Shown here in pieces: positions 1,223 to 17,724 of a DNA stretch of 18,545 bases. The notes beneath the pieces were generated by a model that worked only from the letters and a program-made list of their open reading frames with translations, ran no database searches and was not told the origin of the DNA. The translations under genes and the position numbers were made by a program. The stretch is from NCBI GenBank assembly GCA_946479905.1, contig CAMLIA010000068.1, forward strand, positions 1 through 18,545. The letters run 5' to 3'. The DNA comes from an uncultured Frankiales bacterium. GTDB lineage: Bacteria > Actinomycetota > Actinomycetes > Mycobacteriales > SCTD01. The first letter of the stretch is position 1. Each line of letters opens with the position of its first letter.

Positions 1223-1265
1223 GGGTTCCTCGTGGGTCAGCGATGGCGGACGGCAAGGGTAGCAG

Positions 1266-1275
1266 TGGTATACCA
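1266..1275. promoter_or_regulatory. Palindromic operator TGGTATACCA, copy 1
   Basis: Perfect 10-bp palindrome in the 67-bp gap between the GH1 gene and the GH51 gene on the minus strand, 43 bp upstream of the GH51 ATG. The identical sequence recurs at 2528-2537 and 8180-8189. Palindromes with a central TA and GGT/ACC arms fit GntR-family (FadR/NanR-like) regulators. The regulator identity is inferred. Confidence 0.75.
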
Positions 1276-1289
1276 AACTCGCGTGCGGC

Positions 1290-2483: not shown

Positions 2484-2526
2484 TGCGCTCGTCTCCCTCG
2501 GACTCCCGGGCCAGTCAGCCCGAGAT

Positions 2527-2538
2527 GTGGTATACCAC
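2527..2538. promoter_or_regulatory. Shared divergent operator GTGGTATACCAC, copy 2
   Basis: Perfect 12-bp palindrome containing the TGGTATACCA core (2528-2537), in the 91-bp gap between the two divergent GH1 genes. It lies 44 bp from the minus-strand GTG at 2483 and 37 bp from the plus-strand ATG at 2575. Such central placement would let one bound protein control both directions. On either strand the core reads TG-N-TATACC, which resembles an extended -10 element. Confidence 0.8.
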
Positions 2539-2574
2539 GCAGGCCAGCTCCGTGCACCCAACAGGAGATCATCG

Positions 2575-3726
2575 ATGTCCCTCGCGTTCCCTGACCGCTT
2601 CCTGTGGGGTACGGCGTCCGCCGCCCACCAGACCGAGGGCAACAACCACCTCTCCGACGTCTGGCTCGCCGAGCGCGCGCCCGGCACGTGGTTCAAGGCG
2701 CCGAGCCTCGACGCCTGCGACTCCTTCCACCGCTACCGCGAGGACATCGCGATCGTCGCCGAGGTCGGTCTGGGTGCCTACCGGTTCAGCCTCGACTGGG
2801 CCCGCATCGAGCCGGACGAGGGCACGGTGTCGCACGCCGCGCTCACGCACTACCGCACCATGGTCGAGGCCTGCCTCGAGGCCGGGGTCACGCCGGTCGT
2901 GACGCTGCACCACTTCACCAGCCCGCAGTGGTTCGCGGCCGACGGGAACTTCAGCAACCCCAAGGCGGTCGACCGGTTCGGCCGGTTCTGCGAGATCGTG
3001 CTGCCCGTCCTCGAGGGCGTCGACGTGGTCTGCACCATCAACGAGCCCAACATCGTGCTCGAGCTGATGGGCCTGTTCCTCCCGGAGTCGATGAAGCCGT
3101 CGGTCCCGGAGACGCGCGCCATCATGCTCGACGCCCACCGCCGGGCCGTGCAGGTGCTCAAGGACGCGGGCACGCGGGAGGTGGGCCTCACCCTTGCCAT
3201 CTCGGGCATGGAGGTCCTGCCCGGCGGCGAGGAGGCGGCGGTGCAGTGGGAGTCCGGGATGTACCCCTACCTGGAGGCGACCACCGGTGACGATTTCATC
3301 GGCGTGCAGACCTACACCGACGCCGTCATCGGTCCCGAGGGCTACGTCTACCCGGGGCCCGACGAGAGCCTGGACATGATCGCCTGGCGCGACCGGCCGG
3401 AGTCGTTGGGCCGCGCCGTCCGCCGTACCCACGAGCTGACCGGCAAGCCGATGTACATCACGGAGAACGGCATCCCGACCGCCGACGACCCGCACCGGAT
3501 CGAGTACGTACGCCGGGCGCTCACGAGCCTGCACGAGGCGATGGCCGACGGCGCCGACGTGCGCGGCTACTTCTACTGGTCACTGCTGGACAGCTACGAG
3601 TGGACGCACGGCTACGTCCCGAAGTTCGGCCTCGTCGCGGTCGACCCGACGACGTTCGTGCGGACGGTCAAGCCCAGCGCCCGCTGGTACGGCGGCGTCG
3701 CGAAGTCGGGCATGCTCCCGTCGTGA
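2575..3726 (+). CDS. GH1 family beta-glycosidase (second of a divergent pair)
   Basis: Predicted cytoplasmic beta-glycosidase, 383 residues. Seen in order: FLWGTASAAHQTEGN (residues 9-23), LHHF (111-114, in place of the usual His-Trp), acid/base motif CTINEPN with Glu157, nucleophile motif MYITENG with Glu297, and FYWSLLDSYEWTHGY (333-347). The Glu-Trp in that block fits non-phosphorylated glycosides. The His-Phe variant and short length resemble the more divergent, partly archaeal-like branch of GH1 (family knowledge, loosely applied). The ATG at 2575 is set by AGGAGAT at 2563-2569. An in-frame GTG at 2527 is unlikely because it lies inside the operator and lacks a ribosome-binding site. The sulfatase start overlaps its stop codon, so the two are co-translated. 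Confidence 0.9.
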   Translation: MSLAFPDRFLWGTASAAHQTEGNNHLSDVWLAERAPGTWFKAPSLDACDSFHRYREDIAIVAEVGLGAYRFSLDWARIEPDEGTVSHAALTHYRTMVEACLEAGVTPVVTLHHFTSPQWFAADGNFSNPKAVDRFGRFCEIVLPVLEGVDVVCTINEPNIVLELMGLFLPESMKPSVPETRAIMLDAHRRAVQVLKDAGTREVGLTLAISGMEVLPGGEEAAVQWESGMYPYLEATTGDDFIGVQTYTDAVIGPEGYVYPGPDESLDMIAWRDRPESLGRAVRRTHELTGKPMYITENGIPTADDPHRIEYVRRALTSLHEAMADGADVRGYFYWSLLDSYEWTHGYVPKFGLVAVDPTTFVRTVKPSARWYGGVAKSGMLPS

Positions 3727-5168
3727 GCTCCGGTCGGCTGAACATCCTCTGGATCTGCACGGACCAACAGCGCTTCGACACGCTCGGCTGCTACGGGAAC
3801 CCCTGGGTCCGGACGCCGAACCTGGATGCGCTGGCTGCGGAGGGGGTGCTGTTCGAGCACGCCTACACGCAGAGCCCGGTCTGCACGCCGTCGCGGGCGA
3901 GCTTCCTCACCGGCCGCTACCCCCGCACGACGCGGGCCCGGGCGAACGGCCAGTCGATCCCGGCCGACGAGGTGCTGGTCACCCGGCTGCTGGCGGAGGC
4001 CGGGTACGCCGGCGGGCTGGCGGGCAAGCTGCACCTGTCGCCCGCGCACCCGGACGTGGCGCCGGCGATGGAGCGCCGGATCGACGACGGCTACGCGGTC
4101 TTCGACTGGTCGCACCACTCGGGACCCGCTGCCTGGCAAGGGGACTCGTACGGCGCCTGGCTGCGCGGACTGGGGGTGACGTACGAGGCGACCCCCTTCG
4201 AGGGCTCGCCGAACGTGTCCGTAGGCCCGCCGACGGAGCACCACCAGACGACCTGGTGCGTGGACCGGGCGATCGAGTTCGTCACCTGGGCGCGTGAGTT
4301 CCAGGCTCCGTGGTTCTTCTCGGTCAACATCTTCGACCCGCACGCGCCGTTCGACCCGCCGCTGGCCTACCTCGAGCGGTACCTGGAGCGGCTCGACGAG
4401 ATCCCGCTCCCTGCGTACGCCCCCGGCGAGCTCGCGGACCGGCCTGTCTGGCAGCGCATCGACCACGACGGGGCCATGACCGGGACGTGGCTGAAGTACG
4501 ACGAGATGACCGACCAGGACCACCGGCTGATCCGCGCGGCGTACTGGGCGATGTGCGACCTGATCGACGACCAGGTCGGTCGGCTGCTGCGGGTGCTGGA
4601 GCACAACGGCCAGGCGGAGAACACCCTGGTGGTCTTCATGTCCGACCACGGCGAGATGCTCGGTGACCACGGCATCTACCTCAAGGGCCCGTACTTCTAC
4701 GAGCCCGCGGTCCGGATCCCGTTCCTCGTGCGCCTGCCGGGCGTGATCGAGCCGGCTCGCAGCGAAGCTCTCGTCGAGATGGTCGACCTGGCACCCACGC
4801 TGCTCGACGCGGCCGGGCTGCCGCGGCACCCCGGGATGCAGGGCCGCTCGCTGTGGCCCCTCCTGACGGGGGAGCTCAAGGGGGGCGTCCACCGCCACGA
4901 CGTGTACTGCGAGTACTACGACGCGATGCCCTGGCACACCGACCCGGCCGCCTGGGCCACCATGGTCCGGACCCGCGAGCACAAGCTGGTGCGCGCGCAC
5001 AGCGACAGCAGCGGGGAGCTCTACGACTTGGTCCGCGACCCGAGGGAGAGCCAGAACCTCTGGGACGATCCTGACTACACGGCCGTGAAGCTCGATCTGC
5101 TCCAGCGGATGTGTGACCGCATGGCCATGACGGCGGACCCGCTGCCGCTGCGAGAGGCCCAGTGGTAG
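3723..5168 (+). CDS. Type I (formylglycine-dependent) sulfatase, cytoplasmic
   Basis: Hydrolyses sulfate esters, here probably on sugars. The 481-residue product carries the S1/alkaline-phosphatase-fold landmarks: metal-binding Asp14 in ICTDQQR, the formylglycine motif CTPSRASFLTGR with Cys54 and Arg58, Lys102 and His104 in GKLHL, His207 in DPHAPF, Asp308-His309 in MSDHGEMLGDHG, and Lys321. The Cys-x-Pro-x-Arg form needs oxidation to formylglycine; no maturation enzyme is encoded in the window. There is no signal peptide, so it acts inside the cell on imported oligosaccharides. It starts at GTG 3723 in a GTGA overlap with the GH1 stop, a classic coupling arrangement. The substrate is not readable from sequence, but pairing with GH1 and GH51 suggests sulfated plant- or alga-type glycan fragments. 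Confidence 0.92.
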   Translation: MSSGRLNILWICTDQQRFDTLGCYGNPWVRTPNLDALAAEGVLFEHAYTQSPVCTPSRASFLTGRYPRTTRARANGQSIPADEVLVTRLLAEAGYAGGLAGKLHLSPAHPDVAPAMERRIDDGYAVFDWSHHSGPAAWQGDSYGAWLRGLGVTYEATPFEGSPNVSVGPPTEHHQTTWCVDRAIEFVTWAREFQAPWFFSVNIFDPHAPFDPPLAYLERYLERLDEIPLPAYAPGELADRPVWQRIDHDGAMTGTWLKYDEMTDQDHRLIRAAYWAMCDLIDDQVGRLLRVLEHNGQAENTLVVFMSDHGEMLGDHGIYLKGPYFYEPAVRIPFLVRLPGVIEPARSEALVEMVDLAPTLLDAAGLPRHPGMQGRSLWPLLTGELKGGVHRHDVYCEYYDAMPWHTDPAAWATMVRTREHKLVRAHSDSSGELYDLVRDPRESQNLWDDPDYTAVKLDLLQRMCDRMAMTADPLPLREAQW

Positions 5169-5261: not shown

Positions 5262-8138
5262 ATGTCGAAGAGCTTCTCGGTCCCGTTGCGCATGGCCTTG
5301 CTGTGGCCTGCGGTCGGTGCCCTTGTTGCGGGGGGTGTGGTGGCGCCGCAGGTGGCGAGCGCCTCGCCGCCGACGACCTACCACGTCGCCACATCGGGCA
5401 GCGACCTGAACCCGGGCACCTCTGCGCTGCCGTTCCGGCACATCCAGAAGTGCGCCGACGTGATGGTGGCAGGCGACACCTGCCTGGTCGGCAGCGGCCG
5501 CTACCCGGAGACGGTGACGCCCAAGGCGTCGGGAACATCGAGCCTGCCAATCACGTACGCGCCCGAGTCCGGTGCGAGCGTGACGGTCGACGGGTCGGAC
5601 CCCGTGCCGGGTGCCTGGGCAGCCGTCAGCTCGGTGCCCTCCTCCGTGAACGGCGTGTCCGACCCGCTGCTGGCCCAGTCGCCCTTCGCCACGGCCGTCG
5701 CAGCCGGCAAGGTCTTCGCGACGTCGGTGGCCATCGCGCAGCCCTTGATGGGTGCGAACCTGCTCGGCATCGCCCGCACGGACAACGTCCCTCCGCCGCA
5801 GGTCTTCTACAACGGCCAGATGATGATGATGGCGCAGTGGCCGCCGGCTCCTGCGTCGGAGGACCCGATGCACCCGACGATCGAGGTCGCCGGGGACGGC
5901 TCCGGGGCGACCACGATCGCTGACCCGAAGCTGACGCAGCCAGCGGGCTACTGGGTGGGTGCGCAGGCGTACGTGCTCGGGACCTCGTGGTCGCAGACGG
6001 TCCAGGTCGTCGCCTCGGCTCCCGGGCTGCTCACGGTCTGCTGCACGGTCACCGAGGAGTCCTCGCGGACCGATCCGCTGCTCGCCAAGAACGGCGTCGA
6101 CTCCCCGGTGTGGCCGTTCAGCAGCGGCGGCAACGTCTACTGCGCCAACCACATGGCGCTCAACAGCCCGATGACCGAGCGCTTCTTCCTCTACAACAAG
6201 CTCGAGTCGTTGTCCGGACCCGGTGACTGGTTCTACGACACGGACGCGCAGACGCTCTACTTCTACTCGCCGACCGGAGCAGCCCCCGCTGCCGGAACGG
6301 TGAAGGTGAAGCGCCGGTCGATGGCTTTCGACCTGGCGACCAACAACGCCAGCTACACGTCCGTCACCGGGTTCCACGTCTTCAGCTCCACCATCGAGAC
6401 CGGAGCGGCGAGCCAGGGGGACACCCTCGACCAAGTCGACGTCAACTACCCGTCGTACTTCACCGACATGGACGGCGACCCGAACCAGCCTGAGGGCGCT
6501 CCGGGCATCCAGGACTGCATGACCACCGCTGCCACGACCAGCGGGGTGATCCTGCGGGGTCACAGCAACGTGCTCCAGAACAGCACCGTGCAGAACAGTG
6601 CCGGCAACGGCGTGCGGCTGGACTCCGGCTTCCCCGTCGACGGCACCAAACCTGGCAACACGGTGACCAACAGCGTCATCAGGAACGTCGGGTTCGCCGG
6701 TGCCTTCGCCACCGCCGCGGTGCTGCCGTCCGGTGACAACAACACCATCACCCACAACACCATCGACCACTGCGGTCAGGCCTGCATCGAGATCAGCGTG
6801 CCGACGCCGCTCGAGGTCCACAACCTGCGGATCGCCTACAACGACATCTCGCACGCGGGCATGTTCCGGCTCGACGGCGGTGCCATCTACGCGCTCGGCA
6901 ACTACGACTTCACGGGGTCGAGGGTCGACCACAACTGGGTGCACGACGCCGAGCCGCTACCGGGTCTGTTCGACCCGGCGACGTCCGGCATTTACTTCGA
7001 CGGCGGCGCCCATAACATCCAGGTCGACAACAACGTGGGGTGGAACAACGTTCGCGGGCTGCTCGGCTTCGCCGTGGCCTCCGTGACGAGCCAGTACGGC
7101 CTGCACATCTTCAACAACGACGGCGACGGCTTCATGCACATCAAGGCCGGCTGCGAGGTGGCGTCCCCGCCCACCAACTGCAACCGGGTCCAGAACAACC
7201 TGGGCTACATCAGCACGACGGCGAACGGGGACGCGCCTGCGCCCGACATCGTCGTGGACCACAACATCCCTGCCGCCGCGCCGTACACGTTCCCGCAGCC
7301 GTTCACGGACCCGCAGTACGCCGACCCGCGGGTCAAGGACTACCGGCTGCAGTCCACGTCGCCTGGCCGGAACGCGGCTGTGGTCCTCAACCACGCCAGC
7401 GACCCGACCATCATCGGTGACGTGACGGGCGGGTCAACCGACTCCACCCCGAGCGCCGGCGCGTACCAGTACGGCGCCCCGCGCTGGGTCCCGGGCGCGG
7501 TCTCCCTCGGTACTCCCGTCGTGCTGCACTACGGCCCGACCGTCGACAGCACCGACCCGATCAACCGTGGCGCGACCGCCGACCCGGCGTGGGAGCACCC
7601 GAACTACCACCCGGGCTTCGTCGTGCGCATGACGAACGACGCCATCGACAGCTCCGACTGGTTCGGCGCAGACACCGACAACGTGGCGGGCAACCTCACG
7701 CTGCCCTACATCACCCCGGTCGCCAACGCGAGCAACCCGATGTTCGCCAACCTCTCCAACCTCGCCATCGACAAGGTCGAGATCCGGGTCTTCGCCCGCA
7801 GCTACGACCACCTCGGCAGCGTGGCGAACCTGACCGTCTCAGCGGACGGCCTCGGCACGGTGTGGGATGCGGGCGGCGTCAACTTCGACAGCTCCTCGTC
7901 GGGCGTGAAGATCGACGTCACGAGCGCGGTCGGAGGCGTGTGGAACAACCTGCCGAGCTGGGTGAACGCCTACGCGACGATGACGGCACCCGCCGCCGGA
8001 GCCAGGACGGGCGGCGCGACGGGTGTCTACACCGCGGGCATCTACCTGCACGCCGTGGAGATGTACGTGACGGCGCACTGCATCAGTGCCACCGCGGCGC
8101 CGTGCTCGGCGGTCGACAACACCCCGACCGCCTCCTAG
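5262..8138 (+). CDS. Secreted right-handed parallel beta-helix protein, probable polysaccharide lyase or hydrolase
   Basis: Extracellular protein of 958 residues, likely the enzyme that attacks the polymer first. Residues 1-34 form a Sec signal peptide (basic N terminus, hydrophobic core, cleavage after VASA). The mature start, YHVATSGSDLNPGTSALPF, then GDTCLVGSGRYPETV and LPITYAPESGA, is the standard entry of beta-helix carbohydrate enzymes. A GPGDWFYDTDAQTLYFYSP segment near residue 315 is followed by Asn/Gly-rich helix rungs at about 420-640, such as NNTITHNTIDHCGQACIEI and LDGGAIYALGN. A separate C-terminal beta domain (about 740-950) is unassigned. PL6, GH120 or GH141-like families are all possible; no catalytic set can be named with confidence. 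The ATG follows GAGGAGAG at about 5247-5254. It has its own variant operator, so it may be a single-gene unit. Confidence 0.7.
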   Translation: MSKSFSVPLRMALLWPAVGALVAGGVVAPQVASASPPTTYHVATSGSDLNPGTSALPFRHIQKCADVMVAGDTCLVGSGRYPETVTPKASGTSSLPITYAPESGASVTVDGSDPVPGAWAAVSSVPSSVNGVSDPLLAQSPFATAVAAGKVFATSVAIAQPLMGANLLGIARTDNVPPPQVFYNGQMMMMAQWPPAPASEDPMHPTIEVAGDGSGATTIADPKLTQPAGYWVGAQAYVLGTSWSQTVQVVASAPGLLTVCCTVTEESSRTDPLLAKNGVDSPVWPFSSGGNVYCANHMALNSPMTERFFLYNKLESLSGPGDWFYDTDAQTLYFYSPTGAAPAAGTVKVKRRSMAFDLATNNASYTSVTGFHVFSSTIETGAASQGDTLDQVDVNYPSYFTDMDGDPNQPEGAPGIQDCMTTAATTSGVILRGHSNVLQNSTVQNSAGNGVRLDSGFPVDGTKPGNTVTNSVIRNVGFAGAFATAAVLPSGDNNTITHNTIDHCGQACIEISVPTPLEVHNLRIAYNDISHAGMFRLDGGAIYALGNYDFTGSRVDHNWVHDAEPLPGLFDPATSGIYFDGGAHNIQVDNNVGWNNVRGLLGFAVASVTSQYGLHIFNNDGDGFMHIKAGCEVASPPTNCNRVQNNLGYISTTANGDAPAPDIVVDHNIPAAAPYTFPQPFTDPQYADPRVKDYRLQSTSPGRNAAVVLNHASDPTIIGDVTGGSTDSTPSAGAYQYGAPRWVPGAVSLGTPVVLHYGPTVDSTDPINRGATADPAWEHPNYHPGFVVRMTNDAIDSSDWFGADTDNVAGNLTLPYITPVANASNPMFANLSNLAIDKVEIRVFARSYDHLGSVANLTVSADGLGTVWDAGGVNFDSSSSGVKIDVTSAVGGVWNNLPSWVNAYATMTAPAAGARTGGATGVYTAGIYLHAVEMYVTAHCISATAAPCSAVDNTPTAS

Positions 8139-8281: not shown

Positions 8282-8986
8282 ATGCGCACGATGACCGCAC
8301 AGGTGGATGCCTTCCAGCGCGACGGCTTCGCTGTGTTCGACCGGCTGATCGACGACGACGCCGTGGCCCAGCTGCGGACCATGTACGACGGGCTGCTCGA
8401 CGGCACGATCCCGGGGGTCTCTGAGCTCGACCTCGGGATCAAGACGCGGCAGGTCATGAACGTCGTCCAGTACGCGCCCTGGCTTCACGAGAGCGCGGTC
8501 TTCACGACGGCTCGGGACATCGCCAGGGAGCTCTTCCAGACCGACGACGTGCGGTTCGGCGAGGACATGCTGATCTACAAGCCGGCCGGGGACCCCAACC
8601 AGACGCCGTGGCACCAGGACTTCGCCTACAGCCGGATGCCGGCGGGCACCGAGGTCCGCAAGGGGCAGGTGTCGTTCTGGATCGCGCTGGACGATGCCGA
8701 CCTCGAGAACGGGTGCATGCACTTCATTCCCGGCAAGGACGACGTGCTGCTGGAGCACGTGCTGGCGACCGAGCAGGGCGCAGCAGGGGGGAAGTTCCTC
8801 GAGGTCAAGGACGTCGAGGCACACCTGGACCTGTCCCAGGCTGTGCCGTGCCCGATCCCGGCCGGTGGCGCCACCGTGCACAACGAGGGGACGCCGCACT
8901 ACACGCCGCCGAACCGCTCGGCCTCGCGTCCCCGCCGGGCGTACATCCCGACCTTCTACAACGGCAACCACCCGCGGTTCTCGTAG
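8282..8986 (+). CDS. PhyH-family Fe(II)/2-oxoglutarate-dependent oxygenase
   Basis: Cytoplasmic non-haem iron oxygenase of 234 residues that would couple 2-oxoglutarate decarboxylation to hydroxylation or oxidative dealkylation of a small substrate. Seen: the N-terminal FQRDGFAVFDRL of the family, metal-binding WHQDFAY with His111 and Asp113, SFWIALDDADLENGCMHFIPG (131-151), and a distal block PHYTPPNRSASRPRRAY in which His206 is the likely third ligand and an Arg near 216-219 the co-substrate anchor. The ATG is fixed by GGAGGA at 8269-8274. It is the first gene of the operon that continues with the three beta-helix paralogues, which implies a role in modifying a sugar or a substituent released from the polymer. 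The substrate cannot be deduced. Confidence 0.88.
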   Translation: MRTMTAQVDAFQRDGFAVFDRLIDDDAVAQLRTMYDGLLDGTIPGVSELDLGIKTRQVMNVVQYAPWLHESAVFTTARDIARELFQTDDVRFGEDMLIYKPAGDPNQTPWHQDFAYSRMPAGTEVRKGQVSFWIALDDADLENGCMHFIPGKDDVLLEHVLATEQGAAGGKFLEVKDVEAHLDLSQAVPCPIPAGGATVHNEGTPHYTPPNRSASRPRRAYIPTFYNGNHPRFS

Positions 8987-9034: not shown

Positions 9035-10849
9035 ATGTCGGAGCTCGACCGCAGGCAGCTGCTTCGAACCGGAGGGATCGCGACGCTTGCCGCGGGCGGA
9101 CTCGCGTTGTCCGTCCGACACGCCGACCCGGCCGCAGCGGCGACCGTCGGGGCCGACACCTTCCTCGACGACCTCGTCAACGACGCCGGCGGCGAGGTCG
9201 TCAACGTCACGAACCCTGCCTACGGCGCGAAGGCGGACACCATCCGCTCGAGCCGACACGGTGCGATCACGGCCGGGTCGACGACGTTCACGCACACAAC
9301 GGTCGCCGCCGACACCTCCACCAAGCTGGCCGTCGCCTTCACCACCGCCGACGCGGGAAAGGTCATCACCGTCCAGGGCGCCGGCCCCTCCGGCGGCGTC
9401 CTGTCGACCACCATCGCGTCGGTCACCAACGCGTCCACGGTGGTCCTCGCCGCCTCCGCGAACACGTCGGTGGCGGACGCCGCGTTCGCGTACGGGACCG
9501 ATGACACGGCCGCGATCGTCGCAGCGATCAGTGCCGCGGGGACGACTGGCATCGTCTACCTGCCCGCGGGCATCTTCACGATCAGGGGAGCGTCGAGCTC
9601 GGGTGGACCGATCGTGCACTCGGGTCGCGGCGGGATCGTGGGACGGGGTGGGAAAGCCACCGCGCTGGCCGACCCGCAGCTCGGCTCCAACACGGTGCTG
9701 CTGTGCAGCGACCCGACGGCTGGCCTGGTCCTCAACGGCTCGGCCCGCTACGAGAGCTTCAGCTGCGACGGCAACGGGATCGGGACGCGGCCGCTGCAGA
9801 ACGGCATCGTGGTGTCCGGCACGGTCACGGCGCCGTGCTCGCACGCGACCTTCATCGACGTGTGGGCCACCGGGTCGGCCGGCACGGGGTGGGCCATCAA
9901 CGGCGGCACCTCGAACGGCTACTACGACTGCGGCACCAGCGACAACGCGCTCGACGGCCTGTCCATCGACGGTGGCGCCAGCAGCCTGCTGTTCCTCGGC
10001 TTCCGCCAGCACGGCGACCTCCGCTACGGCGTCAGGGGCGACCAGCTCGTCAACGCGCAGGGCGGCACCACGAAGCCGACGACCGGGATCCGCTTCGTCG
10101 CCTCTCTGCTGGGCGACGACCACGGGCGGCCCGCCGGGACGTCGACGGTGTACCTGCGCAACGCCGTCGACTGGCACTTCCCCTCCACGACGATCGGGGG
10201 GAAGAACCTCACCGGCCCGACGGTGGACCTCGACCAGACCGAGGGCTACGGCATCGACCTGTCCGGTTGCTGGATCTCCGGGTCCAAGCAGAACGCCAAC
10301 CCGGGCTACGCGTGTGTCCAGATCAGCGGGTCACCGACGTCATCGGTGGAGCGGCTGTTCCTGAAGGTCGACGGCTGCCACCTGCAGGACGGCGACAACT
10401 CGGTCTACGTGAAGGGCGCACCGGGGGCCGCGCGCTACTCGGCGGCCGGGGACTGGGACGACACGACGACCTACGGTCCCGCGGTCGCCGCCGGCGTACC
10501 GACCTTCGACAGCCTCTTCGACGGCCGCACCGGACAGTGGATCGGCCTTCCGGCGGCGGCGCCGTGGAGCGGCACCGTGTCCTTCCGCGTGATGGCCGAG
10601 CGATGGGTCGAGCTCAAGGGGACCGTGCGCCTCATGGGCCTCGGCACGGGCCCGCTCGTCACCCTGCCCGCAGGATGTCGCCCGCTCACGGCGACCAGAC
10701 GCGTCCCGACCGCGGCGAGCTCCGGCCTCGCGGTGGCGACGGTCACCACGGCTGGTGTCGTGTCGGTGGTGGCGACGGGGACGACGCCGTTCGTGATCGG
10801 TACAGACGTCCGCCTCGACGGCGTGAGCTTCACGACGGGCGGCGCGTGA
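9035..10849 (+). CDS. Tat-exported pectate-lyase-like beta-helix protein with phage-tail-like C terminus (paralogue 1)
   Basis: 604 residues. A Tat signal opens the protein (MSELDRRQLLR, twin Arg 6-7, hydrophobic stretch, cleavage near residue 36). The pectate-lyase-3-type signature is split: AYGAKADT near residue 63 is separated by about 80 residues, containing FTTADAGKVITVQGAG, from YGTDDTAAIVAAI near 153. The helix follows, with PAGIFTIRGA, GRGGIVGRGG, LNGSARYESFSCDGN, ATFIDVWATG and a conserved DNALDGLSID (Asp303, Asp307, Asp312) that could hold catalytic acids. Residues from about 508 carry PWSGTVSFRVMAERWVELKG and a VTLPAGCRP segment, resembling C-terminal domains of actinophage tail proteins. 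The ATG at 9035 is preferred over GTG 9029 because GGGGAGAGG (9020-9028) sits at the right distance. The function as a depolymerase is inferred from fold and context; the substrate is unknown. Confidence 0.75.
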   Translation: MSELDRRQLLRTGGIATLAAGGLALSVRHADPAAAATVGADTFLDDLVNDAGGEVVNVTNPAYGAKADTIRSSRHGAITAGSTTFTHTTVAADTSTKLAVAFTTADAGKVITVQGAGPSGGVLSTTIASVTNASTVVLAASANTSVADAAFAYGTDDTAAIVAAISAAGTTGIVYLPAGIFTIRGASSSGGPIVHSGRGGIVGRGGKATALADPQLGSNTVLLCSDPTAGLVLNGSARYESFSCDGNGIGTRPLQNGIVVSGTVTAPCSHATFIDVWATGSAGTGWAINGGTSNGYYDCGTSDNALDGLSIDGGASSLLFLGFRQHGDLRYGVRGDQLVNAQGGTTKPTTGIRFVASLLGDDHGRPAGTSTVYLRNAVDWHFPSTTIGGKNLTGPTVDLDQTEGYGIDLSGCWISGSKQNANPGYACVQISGSPTSSVERLFLKVDGCHLQDGDNSVYVKGAPGAARYSAAGDWDDTTTYGPAVAAGVPTFDSLFDGRTGQWIGLPAAAPWSGTVSFRVMAERWVELKGTVRLMGLGTGPLVTLPAGCRPLTATRRVPTAASSGLAVATVTTAGVVSVVATGTTPFVIGTDVRLDGVSFTTGGA

Positions 10850-10875
10850 TGGGACAGACGACGAAGGGCGCAGCG

Positions 10876-12699
10876 ATGTCAGGGCTGAGCAGGCGCGGCT
10901 TCCTGCGCGGCGGGGCGGCCGCCGCGGGCGGCATGGCGCTACCCATGGTCACCGCGACCCCTGCGGGAGCGACGGGAGGGGCCGACACGTTCGTGGGGTT
11001 CGTGCGCGACGGCGGCGGCCAGGTCTTCGACGTGAAGAACCCGTTGTGGGGCGCGAAGGGCGACACCGTCAAGGGCGCCCAGACGGGCAAGACGACGAAG
11101 GACGACTACACCTTCAGCCAGAGCACGGCGGGGACGGGCGACACCTCGGGCAAGCCGCCGGCGAAGATCGTCTTCACGGCCGCCGACAAGAACAAGGTCC
11201 TCACCATCCAGACCGCTGCGGCGGACGGCGGTGTGTTCACCACCACGATCGACGAGGTGATCGACGGGACCTCGGTGAGGATGAAGGATCCCGCCCCGGC
11301 CACGGTTGCCAGCGCGGAGTTCTCCTACGGCACCGACGACACCGCGGCGATCGTCGCCGCGGTCCAGGCGGCAGGCGACGACGGCGTCCTGTTCTTCCCG
11401 GGCGGCATCTACACGATCCGCGGGGCGTCGCACGGTGGGCAGATCATCGAGCTCGCGGGACGCGGCGGCATGCGGGGGCGGGGCGGCACGATGGTGCCGA
11501 ACGCTGGGGTCGGCTACCGCGACCCGAACACCGTCATCCTGTGCGCGGACGCGGACGCGGGCCTGCTGCTGAACGGGTCGGCGCGCTACGAGAGCTTCAT
11601 GTGCGACGGGAACAACGTCGCGACGAGCCCGCTGCGGCTCGGCACCCTCAACGCCGCCGGCGTCGTCACGAAGGCACCCTCGGAGGCGACCTTCATCGAC
11701 GTGTGGGCCACGCTGTCGCTCGGCACCGGCTGGGAGATCTTCGGCGCGCAGAGCTGCTCGTTCCACTCGTGCGGCAGCAAGGACAACGCCCTCGACGGCC
11801 TGCACATCGACGGCGGCGCGTCCGACCTGCGCTTCATGCACCTGGAGGAGTACGGCAACAACCGCTACGGGATCCACGGCGACCAGCAGAAGCAGGCCTT
11901 GGGCGGCGGCTTTGCGGTCACCCGCGGGATGCGCTTCTACAGCGGCCTTTGCGACGGCGCCGGGTCCATCCAGAAGACGGTCTCGAAGATCTACCTGCGC
12001 GGCGCCGAGGACTGGCGCTTCCCCGAGCTGATCATGGTGGCCTCGAACACCGGTCCCACCGTCTACCTGGACCAGTCGTCGTGCTTCGGCATCGACCTGT
12101 CCGACGCCCGCATCATCGGCGGCGGGCAGGACAACACGGAGCCCGGCGCCAATGACGTCTGCATCCAGATCGACGGCGACGCTCCCGCCAACAAGGCCGG
12201 GACGTTCGTCGATGTCGGCGGCTGCAAGTTCACCCAGGCGGTCAACGCCATCTGGGTGACCGGCGACCCGAAGGGCTACCGCTACTCGGCCGTCGACGGG
12301 TGGTGGGACTCCTCCTCGGCCGGCCCGGCGACGACCGTCGCGACCGCGCCCGCGATCGACGCCATGTTCCCCGGACGCACGGGTGGCTGGCAGACGGCGA
12401 CCGTGCTCGCACCGTGGAGCGGAAGCGTGAGCTTCCGCATCATGGGCGAGGACTGGGTGCAGCTCACAGGCACCGTGAAGTACGGCGGCTCGGGCGCCGG
12501 CCCGGTGTTCGTGCTGCCGTACGGGTACCGCGCCGAGAGCGGGGGGTCCCAGGTCCCCGTGCCGACCACGGCGGCTCCCGGGGTGGTCAGCATCGCGGCG
12601 ACCGGCGAGGTGTGGGTGGCTCCGGTCGGCACGACGCCGTACGCGGCCAACACGAGCGTGCCGCTCGACGGGGTGTCGTTCCCCGTCGCGCGCAGGTAG
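10876..12699 (+). CDS. Tat-exported pectate-lyase-like beta-helix protein with phage-tail-like C terminus (paralogue 2)
   Basis: 607 residues, colinear with the preceding paralogue. The Tat signal is MSGLSRRGFLRGG (Arg 6-7), with likely cleavage around residue 34 (PAGATG). GAKGD is followed by an inserted segment with FTAADKNKVLTIQ, then YGTDDTAAIVAAVQAAG near 151. Helix blocks: YTIRGASHGG, GRGGMRGRGG, LNGSARYESFMCDGN, ATFIDVWATLS, and DNALDGLHIDGG with Asp303 at exactly the same residue number as in paralogue 1. The C-terminal domain begins near 511 with APWSGSVSFRIMGEDWVQL. ATG 10876 is chosen because its first seven residues align with paralogue 1. An upstream in-frame ATG at 10849 overlaps the previous stop (TGATG) and would add nine residues, so it remains possible. 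The gene ends in TAG, in frame with the next paralogue. Confidence 0.75.
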   Translation: MSGLSRRGFLRGGAAAAGGMALPMVTATPAGATGGADTFVGFVRDGGGQVFDVKNPLWGAKGDTVKGAQTGKTTKDDYTFSQSTAGTGDTSGKPPAKIVFTAADKNKVLTIQTAAADGGVFTTTIDEVIDGTSVRMKDPAPATVASAEFSYGTDDTAAIVAAVQAAGDDGVLFFPGGIYTIRGASHGGQIIELAGRGGMRGRGGTMVPNAGVGYRDPNTVILCADADAGLLLNGSARYESFMCDGNNVATSPLRLGTLNAAGVVTKAPSEATFIDVWATLSLGTGWEIFGAQSCSFHSCGSKDNALDGLHIDGGASDLRFMHLEEYGNNRYGIHGDQQKQALGGGFAVTRGMRFYSGLCDGAGSIQKTVSKIYLRGAEDWRFPELIMVASNTGPTVYLDQSSCFGIDLSDARIIGGGQDNTEPGANDVCIQIDGDAPANKAGTFVDVGGCKFTQAVNAIWVTGDPKGYRYSAVDGWWDSSSAGPATTVATAPAIDAMFPGRTGGWQTATVLAPWSGSVSFRIMGEDWVQLTGTVKYGGSGAGPVFVLPYGYRAESGGSQVPVPTTAAPGVVSIAATGEVWVAPVGTTPYAANTSVPLDGVSFPVARR

Positions 12700-12707
12700 G
12701 GGAGGGG
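12699..12707 (+). promoter_or_regulatory. Ribosome-binding site GGGGAGGGG fixing the GTG start at 12712
   Basis: Purine-rich run beginning on the last base of the TAG stop at 12697-12699 and ending 4 nt before GTG 12712. It makes independent re-initiation of paralogue 3 likely, and it lies in the short segment between two genes that share a reading frame. Confidence 0.65.
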
Positions 12708-12711
12708 CGGC

Positions 12712-14529
12712 GTGACGTTCGAGGGCAGGATCCAGGATGAGGGCGGCGAGGTCGTCGACATCACGAACGAGAAGTACGGCGCCAAGGGCGACACCGTCGT
12801 GGAGGACGGCGGCGGGTCCACCGTCGCGGGCGCGGTGTCCTTCACGCAGACCCGCCGTACGTTCCGGCCCAGCGACGAGGGCAAGGTCGTGACGATCCAG
12901 GGCGCCGGGTACAACGGTGCCGTCCTCACGACGACGATCGCGCAGTACGTGAGCGACTCCACGGTGAAGCTGGCCGTGTCGGCGTTCAAGGCGGTGAGCA
13001 ACGCCGCCTTCTCCTACGGCACCGACGACACCGGCGCCATCCTCAAGGCGATCACCGCGGCGGGCTGGCTGTCGACGATCTACGCGCCGGCCGGGATCTA
13101 CACGATCCTGGGCGCGACCAACACGAGCTCGGACAACGGCGGCGGCAACCAGATCCACCTTCCGTCGCGAGGTGGGCTGCTCGGGCAGGGCGGCAAGCAC
13201 GACGTCAACGACCCGAGCTCGCGGGCGAACACCACCTTCCTGTGCGCCGACGCCAACGCCGGCTTGATGTTCAGCGGGCACGCCCGCTTCGAGGGCTTCC
13301 TGATCGACGGCAACAACATCGCGACGCTTCCGCTGAAGACGAGCCCGACGGCCGGTCCGAACGCGGCGCAGGCCCCGCTGCCGACAGGAGGCGTTCCCAC
13401 CGGCATTCCTACGGGCACGTCGAGCGGCAACGGCACGCAGTACGCCCTGTTCGTCGACGTGTGGGTGAAGCGGTCGGCCGGCGACGGCTGGTCGGTCTTC
13501 GCCTCGCAGAACCTGGCGTTCTACGACTGCGGCTCCACCGACAACGCGCGCGACGGCATCTACTTCGACATGGGTACCGGCGGCCACGACTTCTTCAACT
13601 TCTACGAGCGCGGGAGCCTGCGCTACGGGGTCAGCGGCGACAACAAGATCCCCGGCGGCGGGTTCGTCTACCTCCCGGGCGACATCCAGTTCTTCGGCGG
13701 CGTGCTCGACACGCACCCGAGCCGCAAGGGCGTGTCCAAGGTGCACATGGGGCCCTCCCTCGAGTGGGGCTTCCTCGACATGGACGTCGTCGGCACGAAC
13801 CTGAGCGGGCCGACGATCGAGCTGGACCAGACACTGGACGTCAACCACCGGATCAACCGGTGCCGGATCTGGGCTTCGCCTGGTCAGGCCTGCATCAAGA
13901 TCAGTGGCACCTCCCAGCGCAACGGGCAGCAGCAGCTGTTCCTGAAGACCGACGGTTGCTCGTTCCTGTCGGGTGACTCCTCCGTGCTCGTCACGGAGGG
14001 GAACGGGCTCGACCAGTACTTCTCGCGCGGCTGGGTCGTTGACGCGACGACCCGCGGCCCGCAGGCGGTCGGGTACGTCTCGGGCGACACGTCCGTGCAG
14101 CACCTGACGCTGCCCGACGCGAACGTGCTGCTGCAGGGTCGCACGGGCACCTGGCAGACGGTGTCGTTCCCCAGCACCTCTCCGTGGAGCGGCACGGTGC
14201 GCTACCGCGTGATGGCCGAGGGGTGGGTGCAGCTCGAGGGCAGCGCGCAGTCGGCGACCGGTGCCGCCGGGGACCTGTTCACCCTGCCGCTGGGGTACCG
14301 CCCGCCCACGGGGACGGCACGCGGGGTCCTGGTGGCGGTCCGCAACCCCGCCGGGACACAGCACGGCGTGGGACAGGTGACCATCCAGAACGGCGCCGCG
14401 ACCAACACGAAGGCGGGTGTGGTCGCCTACGCGCCCATCGCAGGTCCCGGAGCGCCCAGCGGCGCCACCGTCGTACACCTCGACGGCGTCTGGATCCCGG
14501 TGCGCGCCAACGACGGCCAGATGTGGTGA
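12712..14529 (+). CDS. Pectate-lyase-like beta-helix protein without signal peptide, phage-tail-like C terminus (paralogue 3)
   Basis: 605 residues from GTG 12712. The protein begins directly at the mature domain (VTFEGRIQDEGGEVVDITN, then KYGAKGDT), lining up with the sequence just after the Tat cleavage sites of the two upstream paralogues; no signal peptide exists. The inserted segment contains FRPSDEGKVVTIQGAG, and YGTDDTGAILKAI comes near residue 102. Helix blocks: YTILGATN, FEGFLIDGNN, LFVDVWVKRSAGDGW and DNARDGIYFD (Asp277, Asp281, Asp286). An additional Pro/Gly/Thr-rich loop with GGVPTGIPTGTSSGNG lies near 223-240. The C-terminal domain starts near 488 (SPWSGTVRYRVMAEGWVQL, then LPLGYRPP) and ends HLDGVWIPV. 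It follows a TAG stop in the same frame. It may be exported with a partner, be a fission product of a fused gene, or act inside. Its stop overlaps the next ATG. Confidence 0.72.
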   Translation: MTFEGRIQDEGGEVVDITNEKYGAKGDTVVEDGGGSTVAGAVSFTQTRRTFRPSDEGKVVTIQGAGYNGAVLTTTIAQYVSDSTVKLAVSAFKAVSNAAFSYGTDDTGAILKAITAAGWLSTIYAPAGIYTILGATNTSSDNGGGNQIHLPSRGGLLGQGGKHDVNDPSSRANTTFLCADANAGLMFSGHARFEGFLIDGNNIATLPLKTSPTAGPNAAQAPLPTGGVPTGIPTGTSSGNGTQYALFVDVWVKRSAGDGWSVFASQNLAFYDCGSTDNARDGIYFDMGTGGHDFFNFYERGSLRYGVSGDNKIPGGGFVYLPGDIQFFGGVLDTHPSRKGVSKVHMGPSLEWGFLDMDVVGTNLSGPTIELDQTLDVNHRINRCRIWASPGQACIKISGTSQRNGQQQLFLKTDGCSFLSGDSSVLVTEGNGLDQYFSRGWVVDATTRGPQAVGYVSGDTSVQHLTLPDANVLLQGRTGTWQTVSFPSTSPWSGTVRYRVMAEGWVQLEGSAQSATGAAGDLFTLPLGYRPPTGTARGVLVAVRNPAGTQHGVGQVTIQNGAATNTKAGVVAYAPIAGPGAPSGATVVHLDGVWIPVRANDGQMW

Positions 14530-15326
14530 TGGGTGCCGCACCGGTTGTCGCAAGCGACCTCGGGTACGCCGAGCGCGGCGGTCGCGTGCTCCGGCTCGAC
14601 CTCTACCGACCCAGTGACGACCGCTCGTTCGGCACCCGACCGGGTTGGGTGTTCGTGCACGGTGGCGGGTGGATCGCCGGTGGGAAGGGCCAGTTCGCGC
14701 GCCATGCGACGCACCTGGCCGAGGACCTGGACGCGGTGTGCGCGTGCATCGAGTACCGGTTTGCCGACGAGGCGCCGTTCCCCGGGCCGGCCGAGGACGT
14801 GGCCGAGGCCCTGCGCTGGCTGCGGGCGCACGCCGACGAGCTCGGCGTCGCGCCGGACGCGATCGCGCTCGCCGGCGGGTCCGCCGGTGGGCACCTGGCG
14901 GCCCTGGTTGCCCTGGGCGCCGTCGGCGACGAGGACGTCGCAGCGTTGGCCCTGTTCAACCCGGTCGTCGACCTCGCGTCGGTCGCCCGTGCCGACGCCG
15001 AGCTGCGTGAGGTCCTGAGCCGGCTGCTCGGTGGATCGCTCGACGACGTCCCCGACCGGTATCACTCCGCGTCGCCCATCACGTACGTCGGAGCGGGCGC
15101 ACCTCCCACGCTGGTCTTCCACGGCACGCACGACCGCCTCGTGCCGTACGAGCGCTCGGAGGCGTTGGTCCGGGCCCTGGGCGCCGCCGGGGTGGCCGCG
15201 GACCTCGTACCAGCTCACGGCGCCGGCCACGGGTACTTCAACGTCGACCCGTGGTTCGGCCCGTGCCTCGACCGGCTCGTCGAGCTCGCGCGCTCGGTCC
15301 ACGGAGCTGGTGCACTGTCACCATGA
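14529..15326 (+). CDS. Alpha/beta-hydrolase, BD-FAE/HSL-like carbohydrate esterase
   Basis: 265-residue serine hydrolase, probably removing acetyl or similar acyl groups from sugars. Seen: the oxyanion-hole motif VFVHGGGW (His44-Trp48), nucleophile motif LAGGSAGGH with Ser118, Asp202 in HGTHDRLVPY, and His234 in GAGHGYF, in canonical order. The lack of a signal peptide suggests action on imported oligosaccharides. ATG 14529 overlaps the upstream stop as TGATG, so translation is coupled to paralogue 3; an adjacent GTG at 14526 is a possible alternative. The next gene starts inside its stop codon. A carboxylesterase without sugar specificity cannot be excluded. Confidence 0.85.
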   Translation: MGAAPVVASDLGYAERGGRVLRLDLYRPSDDRSFGTRPGWVFVHGGGWIAGGKGQFARHATHLAEDLDAVCACIEYRFADEAPFPGPAEDVAEALRWLRAHADELGVAPDAIALAGGSAGGHLAALVALGAVGDEDVAALALFNPVVDLASVARADAELREVLSRLLGGSLDDVPDRYHSASPITYVGAGAPPTLVFHGTHDRLVPYERSEALVRALGAAGVAADLVPAHGAGHGYFNVDPWFGPCLDRLVELARSVHGAGALSP

Positions 15327-16888
15327 CGGGAACCAGTTCGATCGAGCGGACCGTCATGCGGACCCGCGACGGCGTCGAGCTGGCCACGGACGTGTGGCTG
15401 CCCGCGGGCGGCACGCCGCGCCCGGTGATGCTGCTCCGCACGCCCTACGGCATCGACGGAGGTGCGGGTCTCGGTCCCGAGGGCTGGGTGGACAAGGGCT
15501 GGGCCGTCGTCCTGCAGGACGTCCGCGGCCGCTACCGGTCGGCCGGGGCCTTCGACCCGTGGCGCCAGGAGATCCCTGACGGCGAGGACGCCGTGCTCTG
15601 GGCGGCGGCCCAGCCGTGGTCGGACGGCCGCGTCGTCACTGTGGGCATGTCGTACGTCGGCGGCACGCAGTGGCTCGCGGCATCGACGAGCCCGGCGCCG
15701 CTGCGAGCCATCTCACCGGTGATGTGCGGCCCCGACGTGCGTGACGGGTGGATGTACGAGAACCGCGCGTTCCGGGGGCTGAACACCAACTGGTCCTTGA
15801 ACATCGCGGCATCCCGGCCGGGCGTCGGGGACGAGGAGCTGGAACGGATCTCTCAGCTCCGCGCCGGCCACCTGTCGGAGCACCGCGCCTCGGTCGACGC
15901 CATCGCGGCGGTCTTCCCGCCGTACCGCCAGTTCGTCGACTACGACGATGGCGGGTTCTGGCAGCAGCTCGACACGACGCGCCGCTTGGGCGCGATGGAC
16001 GTCGCCGGCTACCACACCGCCGGGTGGTACGACGTGTTCTGCGAGGCCGGAATCGCGGGCTACACCGGCCTGCGCACATCGGCCGCGAGCGAGTACGCGC
16101 GCACCAGCCAGCGACTGGTCATCGGGCCCTGGTCGCACGCCAGCGTCTACGGCAGCGTCACGGGCTCGGTGGACTTCGGACCGCTGGCGAACGGCTGGAC
16201 CCAGGGCTTCCCGGACGAGCTGAACGCGCTGCTGACGGGCTCGCTCGACCGGCGCGCGGTGCCGACCGGGGTGAGCGTGTTCGTGATGGGCGCCAACCGC
16301 TGGGCGCACCTGCCCGACTGGCCGCCACCCTGTACGGCGACCGAGCTGTTCCTCGACGACCGCGGCCGACTCGTGACCGTCGCGCCCTCCGTCAGCGGCG
16401 AAGACCGGTTCGTGCACGACCCGCAGGACCCGGTGCCGAGCCACGGCGGGCGGACCCTGGGCGAGGCCCTCATGGGCCCCTTCGACCAGCGAGAGGTCGA
16501 GGAGCGGCCGGACGTGCTGGTCTTCAGCACCGACCGGCTCGAGACGCACAGGTGGGTCATGGGCGAGGTGCGCGCCTCGGTGTGGTTCAGCACGACCGCG
16601 GCCGAAGCTGATGTCGTGGTCAAGCTCGTCGACGTCCTGCCCGACGGACGCGCCATCAACGTCGTCGAAGGCGCACGCCGCATCGTGGGAGGGCCCCGAG
16701 CCGCGCTCGTGGAGCTGCCCGTCGGGTCCACCGGCCACTGCTTCCTGCCCGGCCACCGCATCCGGGTTGAGGTCGCGACGGCGAGCTTCCCGCGCATCGC
16801 GCTGGCACCGGCGGGCCGGCAGACCGTCCATCGCGGTGGGCGCACGCCGTCGTCGATCACCCTGCCCGTGGTCGCCGAGCCCGCCTAA
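15323..16888 (+). CDS. CocE/NonD family hydrolase (X-Pro dipeptidyl-peptidase S15-like)
   Basis: 521-residue serine hydrolase of the family that includes cocaine esterase, glutaryl-acylases and X-prolyl dipeptidyl peptidases. Seen: LLRTPYGIDG (38-47), LQDVRGRYRSAG (64-75), nucleophile motif GMSYVGG with Ser110, GWYDVF with probable catalytic Asp237, and LVIGPWSH with His272. A C-terminal jelly-roll follows from about residue 370 (FLPGHRIRVEVATASFPR is typical of the S15 C-terminal domain). There is no signal peptide. The start ATG 15323 overlaps the esterase stop as ATGA. In this operon an ester or amide substituent on the glycan is a more likely target than a peptide, but that is inference. 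Its stop overlaps the stop of the convergent AraC gene by 4 bp. Confidence 0.88.
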   Translation: MTGTSSIERTVMRTRDGVELATDVWLPAGGTPRPVMLLRTPYGIDGGAGLGPEGWVDKGWAVVLQDVRGRYRSAGAFDPWRQEIPDGEDAVLWAAAQPWSDGRVVTVGMSYVGGTQWLAASTSPAPLRAISPVMCGPDVRDGWMYENRAFRGLNTNWSLNIAASRPGVGDEELERISQLRAGHLSEHRASVDAIAAVFPPYRQFVDYDDGGFWQQLDTTRRLGAMDVAGYHTAGWYDVFCEAGIAGYTGLRTSAASEYARTSQRLVIGPWSHASVYGSVTGSVDFGPLANGWTQGFPDELNALLTGSLDRRAVPTGVSVFVMGANRWAHLPDWPPPCTATELFLDDRGRLVTVAPSVSGEDRFVHDPQDPVPSHGGRTLGEALMGPFDQREVEERPDVLVFSTDRLETHRWVMGEVRASVWFSTTAAEADVVVKLVDVLPDGRAINVVEGARRIVGGPRAALVELPVGSTGHCFLPGHRIRVEVATASFPRIALAPAGRQTVHRGGRTPSSITLPVVAEPA

Positions 16889-17724
16889 CCCACGGGGACG
16901 ATCGCCTCGCTGGCCTGCTGGCGGTACTCGCGCGGGGTGACACCGCGCAGCGCGCGGAAGACGCGGCTGAAGTACGCCTGGCTCGTGAACCCGCAGCGCG
17001 CCGAGATCCTGCCGACCGGCTGCGACGTCGTCGCGAGCAGGTGGGCCGCGTGCGCGATGCGGGTCTCGGTGACCCAGGCGATCGGTGTGCATTGCAGCCA
17101 TCGCTGGAAGCTCCGGACGAGATGGCTGCTGCTCACGTTGCTGAGCTCGACGAGGCGGGGGAGCCCCAGCCGCAGGTTCTCCTCCCGCCGCATCGCCTGG
17201 CACGCCTCGGCGAGCCACGTCGGCCCCTCTCGTGCCTCCGCCTCTGAGCCCTCGACGAGGTCGACGAGGGCAGAGAGAAATCTGACAAGACCTAACGCCG
17301 TCGTGTCTTGCTGGTAGCGGGCGAGCGTCGCCTCGAACAGCTCCAGGACCAGGGGCCACCGGTGCTGGTCGACGTGCACGACGACGGGATCCGCCGAGTC
17401 GGTCCACTCCGGCGGCACCGCGGGAGCGACGAGCGACCTGAACGCGTCCCAGGCCGTCGTGGGGAACGCGATGTTGATGATCTCTGCCCGGCCACTTCTC
17501 AGTGTGGAGAGGCGATGCGTGTCACCAGGCCGCACGAAGACCACCGATCCAGGGCCGAGCACGTGCTGCTCGGACTGGGCACGGTGCTCCACCAGGCCGT
17601 GCGTGACGGCGAGCAGCTCGTAGAAGTCGCCGTGCCCATGGACGCTGGTGTAGCGGCCGACCGGAACGAGGGCCGCGTGGTAGGGACCCGACTCCACGTC
17701 GCGGAACCACAGGGCGCGCGACAT
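16885..17724 (-). CDS. AraC-family transcriptional regulator with N-terminal cupin
   Basis: 279-residue DNA-binding regulator. Residues 1-100 form a cupin-like sensor domain (HGHGDFYELLAV, LGPGSVVFVRPGDTHRLS) expected to bind a small molecule such as a sugar. The C-terminal AraC domain has two helix-turn-helix units: LPRLVELSNVSSSHLVRSFQ (188-207) and VGRISARCGFTSQAYFSRVF (237-256), ending GVTPREYRQQ. The ATG at 17724 has no Shine-Dalgarno sequence; a TAGATT box six bases upstream suggests leaderless translation. It is convergent with the CocE-like gene and divergent from the second PhyH gene across 99 bp. It probably controls itself and/or that oxygenase gene rather than the TGGTATACCA sites, since AraC proteins generally bind longer asymmetric sites. 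Confidence 0.92.
   Translation of the reverse strand: MSRALWFRDVESGPYHAALVPVGRYTSVHGHGDFYELLAVTHGLVEHRAQSEQHVLGPGSVVFVRPGDTHRLSTLRSGRAEIINIAFPTTAWDAFRSLVAPAVPPEWTDSADPVVVHVDQHRWPLVLELFEATLARYQQDTTALGLVRFLSALVDLVEGSEAEAREGPTWLAEACQAMRREENLRLGLPRLVELSNVSSSHLVRSFQRWLQCTPIAWVTETRIAHAAHLLATTSQPVGRISARCGFTSQAYFSRVFRALRGVTPREYRQQASEAIVPVG

What the first reader, a model, noticed from the sequence alone, without database searches (positions are those of the whole stretch)
9035..14529. Three tandem beta-helix paralogues combining a pectate-lyase fold with a phage-tail-like C-terminal domain
All three proteins (604, 607, 605 aa) share GAK(G/A)D, (Y)GTDDT(A/G)AI, the DNA-x-DG helix block and a terminal domain with PWSG(T/S)V-x-(F/Y)R(V/I)M-x-E-x-W and LP-x-G-x-RP-like segments. 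From general knowledge, the last resembles C-terminal domains of actinophage tail proteins. A row of exported, tailspike-like depolymerases in a bacterial catabolic operon, with no phage structural genes around, suggests domestication of a tailspike-like architecture for polysaccharide breakdown. I know of no described system of this kind.
Basis: partly seen in the sequence, partly recalled or inferred. Interest (0 to 1): 0.8.

Follow-up and report, generated by a model that had tools for sequence, protein, structure and literature searches.

The report
Phage-spike-like proteins in bacterial sugar operon
A bacterium, probably an actinobacterium, carries inside a sugar-degrading gene cluster three sister proteins built like the spikes with which bacterial viruses grip and cut cell-surface sugars, and one of the three lacks an export signal, so it may have to ride out of the cell on its sisters.

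The parts
9035..10849 (+). P1: Tat-type leader, phage-type insert, right-handed beta-helix, phage RBP-head-like C-terminal domain (604 aa)
   Evidence: AlphaFold2 mean pLDDT 85.5, residues 1-52 under 50
10876..12699 (+). P2: paralogue with Tat-type leader (607 aa; alternative start ATG 10849 overlapping P1's stop)
   Evidence: (PF10518 TAT_signal, E 0.0012, 19.2 bits, below the cut-off of 22.7)
12712..14529 (+). P3: paralogue without a signal peptide (605 aa, GTG start, GGGGAGG upstream)
9242..9493 (+). P1 N-terminal insert (about residues 70-153) shared with phage proteins and weakly with a decoration protein (8eci)
10523..10846 (+). P1 C-terminal domain (residues 497-604): fold of phage receptor-binding heads
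12373..12696 (+). P2 C-terminal domain, same family by alignment
   Evidence: no PHROG hit of its own
14137..14526 (+). P3 C-terminal domain, same family
8282..8986 (+). PhyH-type dioxygenase, upstream in the same direction
14529..15326 (+). BD-FAE / alpha-beta hydrolase esterase; its ATG overlaps P3's stop by one base
15323..16888 (+). CocE/NonD family hydrolase; if it starts at ATG 15323 it overlaps the esterase gene by four bases
5262..8138 (+). 958-aa beta-helix protein with a signal-like N-terminus by eye (Beta_helix; weak Pel9A-like and GH141_M matches)
3600..5168 (+). sulfatase (start not settled)
2527..3726 (+). GH1 glycosidase (start not settled)
1290..2696 (-). GH1 glycosidase (start not settled)
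2..1495 (-). alpha-L-arabinofuranosidase (cut by the window's edge)
16885..17724 (-). AraC-family regulator

Best explanation
P1-P3 are cellular proteins assembled from tailspike modules of phages and used for binding and most likely cutting a glycan outside the cell. Shown by computation: P1 is predicted as a right-handed parallel beta-helix followed by a domain with the fold of phage receptor-binding heads, and P2 and P3 align with it throughout; P1 and P2 carry Tat-type leaders; P3 carries none; the genes are packed in one direction with esterases inside a glycan-catabolic cluster. Inferred: the chains fold and oligomerise (probably as trimers, as tailspikes and WceF do) in the cytoplasm and are exported folded through Tat; conserved polar residues of the helix form the active site; the head domain holds the glycan or the oligomer together. 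Inferred with less certainty (about 0.4): P3 leaves the cell as a subunit of a mixed oligomer with P1 and/or P2.
Against: No oligomer was modelled. The helix matches monomeric enzymes (AlgE4; monomer recalled) as well as tailspikes, so it does not argue for a trimer. Activity is untested; the AlgE4 catalytic residues are not kept, so the chemistry is unknown. P3 has lost R375 (kept in 20/23) and R353 (19/23); P0033 and P0037 of P3's clade have S and T, and all three X-clade members G, where D400 stands. P0033 has its own Tat leader, so hitchhiking cannot be general for P3's clade. Five of eight leaderless members had no visible partner. P2's C-terminal domain alone hit no PHROG at E <= 0.1. 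Foldseek's matches for the C-terminal domain are weak by E-value (best 0.019).
Confidence: 0.6

Rival explanations
1. P1 and P2 are independent homotrimers or monomers of different glycan specificity; P3 stays inside the cell (for instance handling imported oligosaccharides) or is a duplicate that lost its leader and its role.
For: P3 has no leader; a close relative with a leader exists (P0033); paralogues have diverged to 45-49% identity, as expected for different specificities; five leaderless members show no partner.
Against: P3 keeps the eight listed polar residues, the insert and the head domain in an open frame. The leaderless state is spread: at least four changes of state on the tree, direction not told, and five members of clade Y lack a leader.
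Confidence: 0.35
2. They are adhesins or lectins, not enzymes, like the beta-helix adhesin PfbA.
Against: Strongly conserved acidic and tyrosine residues of the helix (that they stack into a groove is my reading, no coordinates were seen); operon with glycosidases and esterases.
Confidence: 0.2
3. They remodel the bacterium's own exopolysaccharide, as WceF does, not a foreign glycan.
For: WceF precedent (PMC7949094).
Against: No polysaccharide synthesis or export gene was recognised among the window's genes scanned; the neighbours are glycosidases, a sulfatase, esterases and an AraC regulator. Only 18.5 kb is visible.
Confidence: 0.12
4. The genes are part of a prophage or prophage remnant.
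For: Phage-type modules.
Against: No phage structural family among nine other genes; Tat leaders on P1 and P2; no full-length relative in the virus collections as searched.
Confidence: 0.04

Closest known systems
WceF of Pantoea stewartii (PMC7949094)
   Same: Bacterial protein with Tat signal, right-handed beta-helix with tailspike-like extra domains, encoded in a glycan-linked gene cluster
   Different: WceF has a P22-like head domain and acts on the cell's own exopolysaccharide from a synthesis cluster. The window proteins have another insert and another C-terminal domain, are three in tandem with one lacking a leader, and lie in a catabolic cluster. WceF was not among the sequence matches.
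Phage tailspikes and depolymerases (Sf6 tailspike, Geobacillus virus E2 ORF18, Dettilon tailspike)
   Different: No virion-binding head domain recognised; Tat leaders on two of three instead; no virion genes nearby
Phage receptor-binding-protein heads (Listeria phage PSA gp15, lactococcal TP901-1 ORF49 and p2)
   Different: Here joined to a beta-helix on cellular proteins, two of them with export signals
AlgE mannuronan C-5 epimerases
   Different: Y149, D152 and H154 fall at T284, A287, N289, which vary
PaoABC and other Tat hitchhiker complexes (PMC4273604)
   Same: A subunit without signal encoded beside one with a Tat signal
   Different: Here signal-bearing and leaderless partners are paralogues; no complex has been shown

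Membership tests
Tailspike-like bacterial glycan enzyme (WceF kind) | right-handed parallel beta-helix related to tailspikes | tested here: met
   (P1 only was folded)
Tailspike-like bacterial glycan enzyme (WceF kind) | additional domains shared with phage tail proteins | tested here: met
Tailspike-like bacterial glycan enzyme (WceF kind) | Tat export signal | tested here: inconclusive
   present on P1 and P2, absent on P3
Tailspike-like bacterial glycan enzyme (WceF kind) | native trimer | not testable with these tools
   no multimer prediction available
Tailspike-like bacterial glycan enzyme (WceF kind) | glycan hydrolysis | not testable with these tools
   needs protein and substrates
WceF family proper | P22-tailspike-like N-terminal head domain | tested here: inconclusive
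   no such family among Pfam matches of 23 members at E <= 0.01; residues 1-52 of P1 are low confidence
AlgE mannuronan C-5 epimerase | catalytic Tyr149, Asp152, His154 (named in PMC7385640, passages seen) | tested here: not met
   T284, A287, N289 in P1, variable in 23 members; the alignment over this stretch is weak (HHalign global mode, probability 5.9; the local mode aligned only residues 155-190)
Pfam PF12708 Pect-lyase_RHGA_epim | score over the gathering cut-off of 27 bits | tested here: not met
   P1 21.9, P2 16.2, P3 no match; 9 of 23 family members match at E <= 0.01, and some relatives carry a precomputed PF12708
Tat hitchhiker complex | subunit without signal encoded beside one with a Tat signal | tested here: met
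   window DNA
Tat hitchhiker complex | physical complex and interdependent export | not testable with these tools
   needs co-purification and deletion strains

The most novel reading that the evidence does not exclude
Bacteria, probably actinobacteria, have turned phage tailspikes into hetero-oligomeric extracellular glycan enzymes: paralogous spike chains from fixed clades assemble with each other in the cytoplasm, and chains without a signal of their own are carried through the Tat pore by a signal-bearing sister chain.
Probability: 0.38. Interest if true: 0.78.

Novelty: new variant of a known kind. Interest (0 to 1): 0.58.

Why it matters
It would be another route, with different phage parts from WceF, by which bacteria took over tailspike architecture, and the only one in a catabolic cluster that my searches showed. 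If the mixed-oligomer reading is right, it shows how a protein that must oligomerise before export can diversify into unlike subunits, and offers partner pairs for testing Tat export of large folded assemblies. The tandem clades also make substrate and partner specificity directly testable.

Tried and rejected
AlgE-type epimerase: among the closest folds, but the three named catalytic residues are not kept. Prophage: disfavoured by the lack of phage genes and the Tat leaders. A hidden signal peptide for P3: the in-frame stop upstream is P2's own TAG, and in the other two frames around the junction I saw no leader in the printed translation. Sequence search of solved structures found nothing convincing for the family (one match, E 0.99; 8eci 'Decoration protein' E 0.014 on the insert, 7chu 0.026, 5olp 0.039). 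WceF was not among the 50 rows shown; that is no test. Plasmids held no match to P1 at E <= 0.01. INPHARED was searched with P3 (4 of 50,697 records, N-terminal matches only, two of them the same phage) and with P0014's C-terminal domain (1 record, E 0.03), not with P1 or P2. IMG/VR, six scans: no relative, two loci, one, three, none; the six loci match within residues 22-192 of their queries.

Literature: nine searches of the held PMC library. Searches listed 0, 0, 1, 4 and 1 papers, none of which by title or abstract start describes an actinobacterial, tandem or heteromeric tailspike-like system (listing only; PMC9862828 on Curtobacterium prophages was not read). One search gave WceF. Papers outside that library were not searched.

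Shared contigs are inferred from equal contig lengths and equal sources. A trial with PF12708 in the genome of L001 and a plasmid search with the esterase, both made while looking for a way to actinobacterial genomes, led nowhere.

Full report
What is there. The window has 66-74% G+C per kilobase, no tRNA and no held genome; that it is actinobacterial is inferred from the composition and from its named relatives. Three genes lie head to tail: P1 9035-10849, P2 10876-12699, P3 12712-14529. Their products are 604, 607 and 605 aa; P2 and P3 are 49% and 45% identical to P1. P3's stop overlaps by one base the start of a BD-FAE/alpha-beta hydrolase gene, which overlaps a CocE/NonD hydrolase gene by four bases if that starts at 15323. 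Around them are a PhyH dioxygenase, a 958-aa beta-helix protein, a sulfatase, two GH1 genes, an arabinofuranosidase, an AraC regulator and a second PhyH gene. Nine other genes were scanned against PHROGs at E <= 0.001: matches were only to esterase, regulator or unknown-function families, none structural.

N-terminal module. An insert of roughly 70-90 residues between the GAKGDT and YGTDDTAAI motifs is shared with phage genes: Burkholderia phage BcepMigl ('pectin lyase-like'), Streptomyces phage Frankenweenie ('minor tail protein'), Pseudaeromonas phage KLEP7 ('putative tail fiber') (4 of 50,697 records with P3 as query, N-terminal part only), IMG/VR loci L004-L009 and a gene in L001. It also weakly matches a 'Decoration protein', 8eci (E 0.014; an actinophage protein as I recall). 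phrog_32881 matches 20 of 23 family members at E <= 0.01; in P1-P3 the match lies within residues 17-194.

A family of its own. Two profile searches of 5.8 billion proteins (7,994 and 7,995 candidates scored; 29 and 35 hits) and one with a C-terminal domain (3 hits) gave 30 members besides the window's three: P0001-P0020, P0030 and P0032-P0040. P0006, P0013, P0020 and P0037 are cut short at one end. Only three have an organism name, all actinobacterial MAGs (P0014; P0035 and P0039, Gaiellaceae); the rest are unnamed. I left out P0021-P0029 and P0041-P0056, which match over 44% of the query or less, and P0031, which matches in the C-terminal domain only. Of eight of these scanned, P0021, P0024, P0026, P0028, P0031, P0042 and P0047 hit tail or 'pectin lyase activity' PHROGs and P0044 hit nothing at E <= 1e-5. 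No full-length relative appeared in the virus collections as searched.

Clades and partners. In a maximum-likelihood tree of 33 members, P1, P2 and P3 fall in separate clades of full support, each with members from elsewhere. Equal contig lengths and sources place these together: 15,888 {P0002, P0003}, 9,739 {P0010, P0012, P0034}, 14,508 {P0015, P0019}, 40,605 {P0009, P0032}, 41,913 {P0004, P0033}, 24,149 {P0035, P0039}. The P1 and P2 clades meet again on 15,888; P0004, in the sister group of the P2 clade, meets the P3 clade on 41,913; clade X (P0018, P0032, P0035) meets clade Y (P0009, P0011, P0016, P0036, P0038, P0039) on both 40,605 and 24,149. Paralogue pairing thus looks old and kept. This rests on contig lengths, not on DNA that I read.

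Signals. By eye, 19 of 33 have a twin-arginine-type leader (two, P0018 and P0035, with RK for RR); 8 have none (seven begin within 8-12 residues of the mature domain; P0036 has a non-signal stretch before a likely later start); 6 cannot be judged (P0006, P0008, P0013, P0016, P0020, P0037). The script's pattern missed P0004's leader, which one search shows. Parsimony asks for at least four changes of state; the tree does not tell their direction. For P3 the DNA is decisive: its frame is closed by P2's stop, 12 bases before its start. P3's relative P0033 has a leader while P0007, outside both, has none, so whether P3 lost a leader or P0033 gained one is open. Of the eight leaderless members, the three whose family partners can be seen (P3, P0009, P0039) each sit with a Tat-leader paralogue; five show no partner (P0007, P0036, P0038 on contigs of 2.5-3.3 kb; P0011 and P0017 on 9.1 and 12.3 kb, where one could have shown).

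Mechanism. Tat carries folded proteins. WceF is a bacterial trimer of beta-helices with a Tat signal; [quoted passage not shown] PaoABC is a three-subunit complex that goes through Tat with one signal (PMC4273604, abstract and opening seen). Joining the two, the simplest use for a leaderless, otherwise intact spike chain in the same gene row is as a subunit of a mixed oligomer. That is inference. The likely site of action is a set of polar residues: N289, D312 and D336, and T284, D307 and Y331, fall at matching places of successive helix turns by my own reading of the sequence (no coordinates were seen); D312 falls at AlgE4 D178 in a weak alignment. D312, Y331 and Q401 are invariant in 23 of 23; T284 and N289 vary; P3 lacks two arginines kept in most (R353, R375). 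The substrate is unknown; the neighbours suggest an acylated, arabinose-bearing or sulphated glycan, which is a guess.

Verdict. The unexpected result is the leaderless third paralogue and its parallels on two other contigs.

Noticed in passing
L005:5404-9491 (IMG/VR contig 3300036793_000118): Two tandem beta-helix genes (664 and 702 aa) that look alike by eye, in what reads as a phage tail region; only the second has the N-terminal insert. Tandem spike paralogues thus occur in phages too and could be the source of the bacterial arrangement.
   Followed up: partly
window:5262-8138: A 958-aa beta-helix protein with a signal-like N-terminus and weak Pel9A-like and GH141_M matches, upstream of the PhyH gene; a further glycan enzyme candidate of uncertain family.
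   Followed up: no
window:8282-8986 and window:17308-18543: Two PhyH-type dioxygenase genes in a glycan cluster; their role there is unexplained.
   Followed up: no
window:1290-3726: Two GH1 glycosidase genes on opposite strands in a divergent arrangement.
   Followed up: no
window:9242-9493: The insert family of P1 weakly resembles a phage decoration protein (8eci, E 0.014): one small module may serve on capsids, tail spikes and cellular proteins.
   Followed up: partly
family members P0020, P0036, P0038, P0039, P0040: These lack the N-terminal insert and run almost straight into the TDDT or TDST helix start, so the insert is dispensable in the family.
   Followed up: no
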